From the NCBI GenBank assembly GCA_028583405.1, contig CM053248.1, positions 26,090,543 to 26,154,542 of the forward strand: DNA of 64,000 nt, read 5' to 3'. The position numbers and the translations under genes are program-made. Shown piece by piece: positions 48,735-52,700 of this stretch; within the stretch, counting starts at the first letter, position 1, and each line of letters opens with the position of its first letter. The stretch comes from Pogonophryne albipinna (taxonomy: Eukaryota > Chordata > Actinopteri > Perciformes > Artedidraconidae). A model generated the notes under the pieces. It had not been told where the DNA came from. It searched no databases and was given only the letters and a program-made list of their open reading frames with translations.

Positions 48735-49739
48735 ATGAACCCCTCAAGCACTGGATCGGATCCCTCCACTGTTCAGCAGGCTCTGTCTCATCAGGGAAAT
48801 CTTCTTGGCCAACATGAACGGTTAATCCAAGTTTTGGTGGAAAGCAATCTTTCCATGACTGAAAGCATCACAAACCTTACTGCCCAGATCTCAGCCCTGA
48901 CATCTTCCGCTATAATCCCTGTCACCTCAAGTCCTCCTCCTGTATCCACTCCATGCCGGGATTTCCACATCACCGACCCAGATCCTTTTCATGGAGAGGT
49001 GGAGAAATGCAAGGGATTCATTTTTCAATGCAATAAGGTATTTCGTCAGCGTTTCTTGTCCTTTCCTTCGGATGTAACCAAAATTAATTATGTTTTGAAT
49101 TTGCTTCGTGGCAGAGCATTAGACTGGGCTGAAGCACTGAGTTCATCTGTGGATTATGACACCCTTTCCTTTGGAGTTTTTTCTGAACAGTTGTCCATTG
49201 TTTTTGATCACCCTGACTACTCCGGCTCTGCTGATAATCGCCTGCTTACACTACAACAAGGGAATCGAACCGTGGCGGATTACTCCATCGAGTTCCGCAC
49301 ACTGGCGACAGAGGCCCGTTGGGACGAGGCGGCTCTAAGGGCAGTTTTTGTTAAGGGGTTGAAGGATCAACTAAAGGATGAGTTGGCTGCACGAGACGTG
49401 CCTGCGGACCTCCAAGCCTTAATTACCCTGGTGTCTCGCCTCGACAGCCGGTTGCGGGAGCGCCGTGCGGAGAAAGCGCAACGTTCTCCTTTTGCTTTTC
49501 CAAGTAAACCAAGTTACTCACCCAGAATTGCTCCTTCTGGTTCCACACAGTCTGGATTCACCGATTCCCCTCGCGTGCCTCCTTTGGCTAGGGAGGAACC
49601 GATGCAGTTGGGACGTACCGGACTATCTCCAGAGGAACGCCTTCGACGTATGAGGAGGGGTGAGTGCCTGTATTGTGGCAAGTTTGGCCATCTCGTTGCT
49701 GTTTGTCCTGTTCGCCCAAACGCAGAAGCTCGTCAGTAA
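48735..49739 (+). CDS. gag: Gag of the Sushi-like chromovirus
   Basis: A 334-residue structural protein that would form the retrotransposon particle and bind its RNA. Residues 1-60 are polar with coiled-coil-like heptads. About residues 75-240 form the retrotransposon capsid region shared with PEG10/RTL proteins (DPDPFHGE, LRGRALDWAE, TVADYSIEFRTLA). Residues 311-324 are a CCHC zinc knuckle (CLYCGKFGHLVAVC). The ATG lies only 16 nt after the LTR, the first in the RNA-binding context. The frame ends in TAA at 49737, 16 nt after a slippery heptamer, and pol follows in the -1 frame. Confidence 0.93.
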   Translation: MNPSSTGSDPSTVQQALSHQGNLLGQHERLIQVLVESNLSMTESITNLTAQISALTSSAIIPVTSSPPPVSTPCRDFHITDPDPFHGEVEKCKGFIFQCNKVFRQRFLSFPSDVTKINYVLNLLRGRALDWAEALSSSVDYDTLSFGVFSEQLSIVFDHPDYSGSADNRLLTLQQGNRTVADYSIEFRTLATEARWDEAALRAVFVKGLKDQLKDELAARDVPADLQALITLVSRLDSRLRERRAEKAQRSPFAFPSKPSYSPRIAPSGSTQSGFTDSPRVPPLAREEPMQLGRTGLSPEERLRRMRRGECLYCGKFGHLVAVCPVRPNAEARQ

Positions 49740-52700
49740 GTTTGGGAGTCCTGACGAGATCACCTTCCCCATCTATTGTTGCCCCAACCCTGCGCCGATT
49801 TCTCATTCCTGCCAGACTCTGTACAAGCTCTCAGACCTTGCCCCTCTCTGCCCTCATTGACTCAGGCGCTGAAGATAGTTTTGTAGACCTAGAACTTGCC
49901 AACCAGTTGGGACTTAAGTTGGAATTATTACAGGATCCTTTGACTGCTTATGCCTTAAACGGTCAACGCATCTCTAGAGTAACTCAGCAGTCACAACCCG
50001 TTACTCTGATTATTTCAGGAAATCACAGAGAACAAATCCAGCTTAAGGTTATTTCCTCTCCAACTACTCCTTTGGTACTTGGTTACCCTTGGCTTCGCAC
50101 CCACAATCCTCATATTGATTGGGCTGGAGGAAGGATCATTGAATGGAATCAGAAGTGTCACCTTAACTGTCTACAGTCAGCTGTGCCTCCAGTTCCTGTT
50201 AACTCGTTACCTGCTCCATGTGTCTCTTCAGATGTAGATTTATCCGGCGTTCCTAACGTTTACCACAACCTGGGTGAGGTCTTCAGCAAGGATAGGGCTC
50301 TCTCTCTCCCTCCTCACCGTCCATATGACTGTCCCATTGTTTTGCTTCCTGGGGCTCCGTTACCCACCAGCAAGCTCTATAATCTGTCCCGGCCTGAGAG
50401 AGAGGCCATGGAGAAATACATCAGCGATTCCTTGGCTTCTGGAATAATTCGTCCTTCTTCCTCCCCTCTGGGTGCGGGGTTTTTCTTTGTGGACAAGAAG
50501 GATAAAACTCTTCGACCCTGTATTGACTTCCGTGGGTTAAATAACATCACAGTTAAGAATAAGTACCCACTTCCCCTGATCAACTCTGCTTTTGAGCCAC
50601 TTCAAGGTGCCACCATCTTCTCAAAGCTTGATCTCAGAAATGCCTATCACTTGGTTCGTATCCGCCAAGGTGATGAGTGGAAGACTGCCTTTAACACCCC
50701 CCTTGGCCACTTTGAGTATCTCGTCATGCCCTTTGGACTCTCCAATGCTCCAGCAGTTTTTCAGTCCCTGGTAAATGATGTCTTGCGTGATTATCTCAAC
50801 CAGTTTGTCTTTGTGTACATCGACGATATTCTGATCTTCTCCAAGAGCCTGGAGGAACACCAGGGACACGTCAGTCTGGTTCTTCAGAGGCTGCTTGAGA
50901 ACAAGCTCTACGTCAAAGCAGAGAAGTGTGAGTTTCACCAGGAACGGATCAGTTTTCTTGGATACATCATCCGGCAAGGCAGGTTGGAGGCGGATCCAGG
51001 GAAGATTCTCGCAGTCTCAGAGTGGCCAGTCCCCACTTCTCGGAAGGAGTTGCAAAGGTTCCTGGGGTTTGCCAACTTCTATCGCCGGTTCATCAAGGGT
51101 TATAGCAAGGTTGCTGCTCCACTCTCCAGTCTCACCTCTATTAAGATTAAGTTCTCCTGGACCCCTGAAGCTAACAATGCTTTTCTTAGACTTAAGTACC
51201 TGTTCACTTCAGCTCCCGTTCTCATCCAGCCTGACTCAAGCAGACAATTTGTGGTCGAAGTTGACGCCTCTGACATCGGAGTTGGTGCTGTTCTGTCTCA
51301 GACTTCCGGGCCAAGCAACAAGCTTCATCCTTGTGCTTTCTTCTCTCGCCGTCTCTCCCCAGCTGAGAGAAACTACGATGTGGGCAACAGGGAGCTGCTG
51401 GCAGTTAAGATGGCATTGGATGAGTGGCGGCACTGGCTCGAGGGCAGCGAGCAGCCATTCCTGGTGTGGACTGACCATAAGAACCTTGAGTACATTCAAT
51501 CAGCCAAACGGCTAAATTCTCGACAAGCCAGGTGGGCTCTCTTCTTTGGACGCTTCAACTTCACTCTCACCTATCGCCCAGGTTCCAAGAATACTAAGCC
51601 TGATGCCCTGTCCAGATCATTCACGTCTGAGGGACCAGTCTCTACATCGGACTCTATTCTTCCCCAGAGATGTGTTGTGGGAGTCGTCACCTGGGAGATC
51701 AGTAACGCTATCCAGGAGGCACTGTTGGAACAACCAGACCCTGGTTGTGGTCCGCCTAACCGTCTGTTTGTCCCAAACTCAGTCCGTTCCCAAGTCCTGC
51801 AGTGGGTTCACAGCTCCCGTTTCTCCAACCATCCCGGTGCTAACCGCACACTCTCCCTTCTCAAGAGACATTTCTGGTGGCCAACAGTCGACAAGGATAC
51901 AAGGGAATTCGTCTCAGCCTGTACAATATGTGCCAGGAGTAAGGCCTCTCATCAGAAACCTGCAGGTTTGCTCCAACCCCTTCCAATCCCTAGTCGACCC
52001 TGGTCACATATTGCTCTGGACTTTGTCACCGGTCTGCCCCCCTCTCATGGTAATATGACAATCCTAACTGTTGTTGACCGCTTCTCTAAGTGTGCTCATT
52101 TTGTTGCTCTACCCAAGCTCCCCTCAGCCCTGGAAACCTCCCAACTTCTCACCCAGCATGTTGTCCGCCTACATGGAATCCCGGCTGACATCGTCTCTGA
52201 CCGTGGACCTCATTTCACCTCCCAAGTTTGGAAGACCTTTTGTCGTTCACTTGGTGCGTCGGTCAGTTTAACTTCAGGGTACCACCCCCAGTCTAATGGT
52301 CAAACCGAAAGGGCCAATCAGGACCTGGAATCTGCCCTCCGCTGTGTTGTAAACCGGAATCAGAAGATCTGGAGCTCTCATCTGCCTTGGGTGGAATATT
52401 CTCACAATTCCCTCACGTCATCAGCTACAGGACTCTCTCCTTTCGAAGCCTCTCTAGGGTACCAGCCACCCTTGTTTCCCGAAGAGGAGATTGAGTTGGC
52501 TGTTCCATCTGTCCAGCATCATGTTCGTCGGTGCCGTAAGATCTGGAGAGACACTCGATCTGCCCTCCTCCGAACTTCCGCCAAGACCCAGCAATCAGCC
52601 AACCGCCGCAGACTTGTTGCTCCCCTTTACACCCCTGGACAGTCAGTTTGGTTGTCCTCCAAGAACATCCCCCTCCTTACAGAGTCCAAGAAGCTGTCTC

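What the first reader, a model, noticed from the sequence alone, without database searches (positions are those of the whole stretch)
49715..49787. CCCAAAC slippery site with ideal spacer and a potential pseudoknot at the gag-pol overlap
The heptamer is exactly in the gag frame. The pol frame is exactly -1. The spacer is 7 nt, the 8-bp stem is perfect, and a loop of the stem can pair downstream. The gag stop lies inside the loop, so ribosomes must melt the structure to terminate. Known for the family: PEG10 keeps a -1 site. The specific CCCAAAC element and structure here are read from the sequence.
Basis: partly seen in the sequence, partly recalled or inferred. Interest (0 to 1): 0.75.

Follow-up and report, generated by a model that had tools for sequence, protein, structure and literature searches.

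The report
Gag-pol frameshift signal, fish retrotransposon
A recently inserted fish-type jumping gene carries a short RNA signal that very probably makes some ribosomes slip back one letter to produce its enzymes, a known trick whose hairpin appears, from comparison of relatives, to have been kept by evolution.

Summary
In detail: C CCA AAC (49715-49721) in the gag frame, pol in -1, 7-nt spacer, perfect 8-bp stem, 14-nt loop opening with the gag stop. It lies in a young, complete LTR retrotransposon (48128-53681) with Tf1/sushi features; named gag relatives are teleost. Close relatives were available only as proteins. Their pol-frame peptides across the junction have arm residues that change together: 23 of 31 can encode a fully Watson-Crick 7-bp stem, against a mean of 7.7 after shuffling. 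So the hairpin is very probably a selected RNA structure, and -1 programmed frameshifting is by far the best explanation; the first in-frame AUG of pol lies beyond the protease active site. The Tf1/sushi group is already described as mainly -1 frameshifting (PMC10085805), so this is a well-supported new example of a known kind.

The parts
49715..49721 (+). slippery heptamer C CCA AAC (0-frame Pro-Asn; -1 codons CCC AAA)
   Evidence: Lys (AAA) at this place in most relatives
49722..49728 (+). 7-nt spacer
49729..49736 (+). 5' arm of 8-bp stem; overlaps the last gag codons Ala-Arg-Gln
   Evidence: covariation
49737..49750 (+). 14-nt loop, opening with gag stop TAA (49737-49739); the same length is inferred in the relatives that fit the register
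49751..49758 (+). 3' arm of stem; pol-frame Leu-Thr-Arg
   Evidence: covariation
49740..49746 (+). GTTTGGG, exact reverse complement of the heptamer, inside the loop (possible alternative pairing; meaning unproved)
49744..49769 (+). a short-range candidate for pseudoknot stem 2: 49744-49748 (GGGAG) with 49765-49769 (TTCCC)
   Evidence: not above shuffles
48735..49739 (+). gag (334 aa): Retrotrans_gag, Ty3_capsid, CCHC knuckle
49715..53095 (+). pol in -1 frame: PR (DSGA at 49859), RT about 50492-50971, RNase H about 51233-51556, integrase, Tf2-1-like SH3, chromodomain about 52889-53032; stop TAA lies in the 3' LTR
48128..48718 (+). 5' LTR (591 nt, 2 differences from 3' LTR)
53091..53681 (+). 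3' LTR; GGACC target-site duplication at 48123-48127 and 53682-53686
48245..48254 (+). putative self-primer ACCAGTTCGT, 30 nt after TTAAATA (48215)
48721..48730 (+). primer-binding site ACGAACTGGT, complementary to the self-primer

Best explanation
This is the -1 programmed ribosomal frameshift signal that makes Gag-Pol in a Tf1/sushi-type (sushi-ichi-like) LTR retrotransposon. A ribosome translating gag pauses at the hairpin 49729-49758 while C CCA AAC is in its decoding sites. In a minority of passages tRNA-Asn (with tRNA-Pro) re-pairs one base back (CCC AAA), and translation goes on into pol; otherwise Gag ends at TAA 49737. Shown here: frame, heptamer, spacer, stem, and covariation of the stem among relatives at protein level. 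Inferred: pausing, slippage, its frequency and any pseudoknot.
For: Geometry and frames. Low joint chance of heptamer and stem. Pol-frame peptides of relatives: 22 of 30 (23 of 31 with one more) can encode a fully Watson-Crick 7-bp stem against a shuffle mean of 7.8, none of 5000 shuffles reaching it; sliding the 3' arm by -4 to -1 or +1 to +3 codons gives 0 to 4 of 30. On a protease tree the outermost tested pair changed together on 5 branches, out of 6 and 6 changes (residues grouped by possible first base; bootstrap joint 3-7). 9 of 113 gags with a CCHC knuckle end AHQ-like-x5-Trp-stop, which is what the 3' arm reads as in the gag frame at the same 14-nt distance; 7 of 9 can pair fully. First pol-frame ATG is 50408, beyond the protease DSGA at 49859; past the gag TAA the 0 frame stops after 4 codons. 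Tf1/sushi elements outside fission yeast are stated to use mainly -1 frameshifting (PMC10085805, passages).
Against: No DNA of any close relative could be fetched, so covariation rests on back-translated proteins with free codon choice, and the register was found through the Lys, partly by eye. The middle tested pair is not significant on the tree (2 joint of 9 and 5 changes, p 0.16; bootstrap median 0.08). Folding energy is ordinary. In 22 of 30 peptides the residue before the Lys excludes a homopolymeric first triplet. 9 of 46 usable peptides lack the Lys in register (by inspection). No expression data.
Confidence: 0.9

Rival explanations
1. The stimulator is an H-type pseudoknot, not a plain hairpin: loop bases (for example 49744-49748) pair just downstream (49765-49769).
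For: Lengths are feasible for an H-type knot (7-nt loop 1, 2-nt loop 2, 6-nt loop 3; my reading). Loop base 10 must be G in 29 of 31 peptides, through Gly or Arg codons, which hints at a base-level constraint. PEG10 uses a pseudoknot (PMC4598141, PMC2800197, passages).
Against: Best stem 2 within 45 nt is -5.4 kcal/mol; 404 of 500 shuffles do as well. The Gly/Arg pattern may be a protein constraint. Stem 2 could not be tested across relatives.
Confidence: 0.35
2. Pol is made without frameshifting, by internal initiation or termination-reinitiation.
For: Near-cognate codons exist in the pol frame near the junction.
Against: The only ATG of any frame starting in 49640-49859 is at 49650, outside the pol frame; the first pol-frame ATG, 50408, lies after the protease active site. 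Neither route needs a slip-prone AAA or a covarying stem.
Confidence: 0.04
3. The hairpin exists mainly to slow termination at the gag stop placed in its loop.
For: The stop opens the loop here and, by tail pattern, in the main class of gags (65 of 113).
Against: 9 of 113 gags stop inside the 3' arm and the arms can still pair (7 fully, the others 6.0 and 6.5 of 7); 19 of 113 appear by tail pattern to stop one codon earlier, pairing not tested.
Confidence: 0.06
4. The loop's GTTTGGG pairs with CCCAAAC and works as an alternative fold that hides the slippery site.
For: Exact 7-nt complement, duplex -8.6 kcal/mol, alternative hairpin -8.3 against -11.1 for the main one. Three close relatives keep Leu-Gly at the same loop codons.
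Against: Leu at that loop codon occurs only in the window element among the 30 aligned peptides; the main hairpin is more stable.
Confidence: 0.1

Closest known systems
Tf1/sushi group chromoviruses, e.g. Takifugu sushi-ichi
   Same: gag CCHC, chromodomain pol, -1 gag/pol junction and a self-priming-type binding site, as described for the group (PMC10085805, passages and part 1 of section 28)
   Different: The published sushi-ichi junction sequence could not be compared here; I saw no description of the 14-nt-loop hairpin in the searches (listings, and passages of a few papers)
PEG10 (domesticated relative)
   Same: -1 frameshift between gag-like and protease frames at an X XXA AAC heptamer with a 3' structure
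   Different: PEG10: G GGA AAC, 5-nt spacer, pseudoknot (PMC4598141, PMC2800197 passages); here C CCA AAC, 7-nt spacer, 8-bp hairpin, knot unproved
West Nile / Usutu virus frameshift sites
   Same: C CCU UUU or U CCU UUU: Pro codon in the P site, first base of the heptamer varies (PMC3835772 table passage)
   Different: Flavivirus, A-site UUU, pseudoknot listed for those sites

Membership tests
Canonical -1 programmed frameshift signal | X XXY YYZ heptamer in the upstream frame | tested here: met
   C CCA AAC in gag frame
Canonical -1 programmed frameshift signal | downstream structure 5-9 nt after the heptamer | tested here: met
   8-bp stem after 7 nt, covariation
Canonical -1 programmed frameshift signal | pseudoknot stimulator (common, not obligatory) | tested here: inconclusive
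   chance level; nearly constant loop G
Canonical -1 programmed frameshift signal | measured frameshifting | not testable with these tools
   needs reporter, profiling or peptides
Tf1/sushi chromovirus | chromodomain at the end of integrase | tested here: met
   Chromo E 1.2e-7, above cut-off
Tf1/sushi chromovirus | binding site complementary to the 5' end of its own mRNA | tested here: inconclusive
   10-nt complement 30 nt after a TATA-like box; 9 of 2000 shuffles reach 10 nt; the mRNA start itself is not known
Tf1/sushi chromovirus | RT-integrase phylogenetic placement | not tested
   no reference set built
PEG10-type element | GGGAAAC heptamer with 5-nt spacer | tested here: not met
   CCCAAAC, 7-nt spacer

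The most novel reading that the evidence does not exclude
Across this fish retrotransposon family selection holds only the A-site AAA and the 14-nt-loop hairpin, while P-site re-pairing is free to decay. The family would then be a natural record that -1 slippage can rest on one tRNA, during or after translocation, as mutational data on a flavivirus site suggest (PMC11507841, section 10 read).
Probability: 0.3. Interest if true: 0.6.

Novelty: new member of a known kind. Interest (0 to 1): 0.4.

Why it matters
It gives a defined cis-element with covariation support for Gag-Pol expression in the clade related to the PEG10/RTL genes, and a natural series (AAA usually kept, first base free, stop position movable, stem kept) in which to ask which parts of a -1 signal selection keeps.

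Tried and rejected
Relatives as DNA: viral contigs and genome contigs gave none; one search gave 3 distant Ty3-like loci in metagenome bins, 2 of them with one long frame (1349 and 1472 aa), not used further. Rfam over 49600-49900 gave 6 matches with E up to 10, all on the minus strand and none at its gathering score. Unusual folding energy: rejected. Pseudoknot: not above shuffles. Pairing gag and pol proteins through equal contig length: dropped as a statistic because coincidences are expected; the two length-compatible pairs with usable ends (P0004/P0131, P0021/P0134) agree with the stem (by inspection). Rows dropped before the covariation count: of 128 pol-frame proteins considered, 79 were too short upstream and 3 had no DSG motif; of the 46 left, 30 entered the first test. 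Left out: P0237 (same motif as P0223), P0197 (missed, added), P0157 and P0208 (one codon shorter), P0144, P0189 and P0244 (gag and pol in one frame), and 9 without Lys in register (P0163, P0170, P0188, P0195, P0199, P0210, P0217, P0236, P0247). P0144, P0189, P0244 and P0210 were added in the 35-row test, with the same outcome (26 of 35 full, shuffle mean 8.3, none of 5000 reaching it). Registers of P0123, P0125, P0143, P0158, P0197, P0198 and P0241 were set by eye. In one search, 11 of the 120 listed gags end in Trp; P0018 and P0117, without a recognised knuckle, were left out of the nine (they score 4.5 of 7). In that call's sliding control the printed offset +1 is the true register, through an index slip of mine; the other offsets score 2.0 to 6.0.

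Full report
What is there. The window holds a complete LTR retrotransposon, 48128-53681: 591-nt LTRs with 2 differences, GGACC target duplications, a polypurine tract before the 3' LTR, gag 48735-49739 and pol open in -1. Pfam finds gag, capsid, protease, RT, RNase H, integrase zinc-binding domain, Tf2-1-like SH3 and chromodomain above cut-off; the integrase core match is below it. Gag hits that carry species names are teleost, e.g. Myripristis and Dallia (that these are teleosts is recalled). It carries a 10-nt site (48721-48730) complementary to LTR sequence 30 nt after a TATA-like box, like the self-priming described for Tf1/sushi elements (PMC10085805 and PMC4600332, passages).

The finding. 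Heptamer C CCA AAC, 7-nt spacer, 8-bp perfect stem, 14-nt loop opening with the gag TAA: all confirmed. A strict in-frame heptamer arises in the overlap in 5.6% of synonymous gag recodings, and a stem like this in register at 0.34-0.54% of positions. The energy alone is ordinary, so comparison with relatives decides.

Relatives. No DNA of close relatives was found, but three protein searches gave 313 gag hits (120 listed) and 7 plus 494 pol hits (7 and 120 listed, one shared). Of 128 pol-frame proteins considered (126 hits, one gag-side fusion and the window itself), 46 reach upstream of the junction. By my reading 32 of these fit one register: Lys, six residues on mostly Val, eleven on mostly Leu; 2 more are one codon shorter, 3 have gag and pol in one frame, 9 lack the Lys in register. 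Where gag reads Lys or Asn in the 0 frame, this -1 Lys must be AAA; but the Lys was used to find the register, so its constancy there is not independent evidence. The residue after the Val position can always start with A or G (30 of 30), as a gag stop at that place needs, though two other positions also meet this test by composition.

Covariation. With free codon choice, 22 of 30 can encode a fully Watson-Crick 7-bp stem; shuffling the 3' arms gives a mean of 7.8 and a maximum of 16, none of 5000 reaching 22; sliding the 3' arm by codons gives 0 to 4. With one missed row added it is 23 of 31, and with fused and Lys-less rows 26 of 35, again reached by no shuffle. The pattern is readable by eye: Pro with Val or Ala (C-G), Ser with Thr (U-A), Thr with Ser (A-U), Ala with Ser (G-U); exceptions are one Ala with Val and one Pro with Cys (tallies). 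On a protease tree the outer tested pair changed together on 5 branches, out of 6 and 6 changes (hypergeometric 6e-6, bootstrap joint 3-7); the middle pair is not significant (2 joint of 9 and 5, p 0.16, bootstrap median 0.08). In the earlier 30-row tree parsimony puts four origins of A at the 3' position, and all 5 tips with Thr there have Ser opposite. Related rows are not independent, so the shuffle figures overstate certainty; the tree figures are the safer ones.

A second line. 9 of 113 gags with a CCHC knuckle lack the stop after the usual Ala-His-Gln and end, after five more residues, in Trp-stop. TGG TGA is the 3' arm read in the gag frame, again after a 14-nt loop; 7 of 9 can pair fully, the other two score 6.0 and 6.5 of 7. 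By tail pattern 65 of 113 stop at the loop start, 19 one codon earlier, 20 were not classified. So the stem can be kept while the stop moves, which argues that the stem itself is selected.

The slippery site. In the pol frame the residue before the Lys is Ala 7, Gly 7, Ser 6, Val 5, Pro 1, others 4 of 30, so 22 of 30 cannot have a homopolymeric first triplet. The canonical CCCAAAC is a feature of this element and perhaps its near kin (gag tails RPN in the five nearest hits), not of the family. GUUAAAC and UCCUUUU are listed as slippery sequences of animal viruses (PMC3835772, table passage), and a preprint reports that P-site re-pairing is largely dispensable while A-site pairing matters more (PMC11507841, section 10 read). 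Some listed relatives may be decayed copies, which would soften this point.

Mechanism. Best: the ribosome pauses at the hairpin on C CCA AAC, slips -1 and enters pol. AUG initiation is unlikely because the first pol-frame ATG (50408) lies beyond the protease active site (49859); readthrough of the gag stop would add only a few codons. A pseudoknot is possible but not above chance here; a loop G is nearly constant through Gly/Arg codons (29 of 31), a hint only. The loop also contains the exact complement of the heptamer, unexplained.

Known or new. The group is described as mainly -1 frameshifting (PMC10085805, passages and part 1 of section 28), and PEG10 keeps G GGA AAC with a 5-nt spacer and pseudoknot (PMC4598141, PMC2800197, passages). 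I saw no description of this hairpin or its covariation in the searches (listings, with passages of a few papers); the held library lacks most subscription papers, and the original sushi-ichi reports were not seen. Verdict: real, functional with high probability, a new member of a known kind.

Noticed in passing
48215-48254 and 48721-48730: TATA-like TTAAATA, then ACCAGTTCGT 30 nt on, complementary over 10 nt to the site just after the LTR: Tf1-like self-priming signature.
   Followed up: partly
53078-53095: The polypurine tract is inside the pol reading frame and the pol stop TAA is supplied by bases 3-5 of the 3' LTR (TGTAA); gag ATG lies 17 nt after the 5' LTR end. A very compact layout.
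   Followed up: no
49740-49746: Loop heptamer GTTTGGG is the exact reverse complement of the slippery CCCAAAC.
   Followed up: partly
53877-54640: Nested, near-perfect inverted repeats (arms 44 to 108 nt) form a foldback-like element about 200 bases after the retrotransposon.
   Followed up: no
39246-42488: Seven tRNA-Arg(CCT) genes on the minus strand in two arrays of about 316-319-bp repeats.
   Followed up: no
P0236, P0247, P0189, P0244, P0144: Some relatives carry gag and pol in a single frame with recognisable remains of the junction; P0236 and P0247 lack the Lys. Possibly lineages that lost frameshifting.
   Followed up: no
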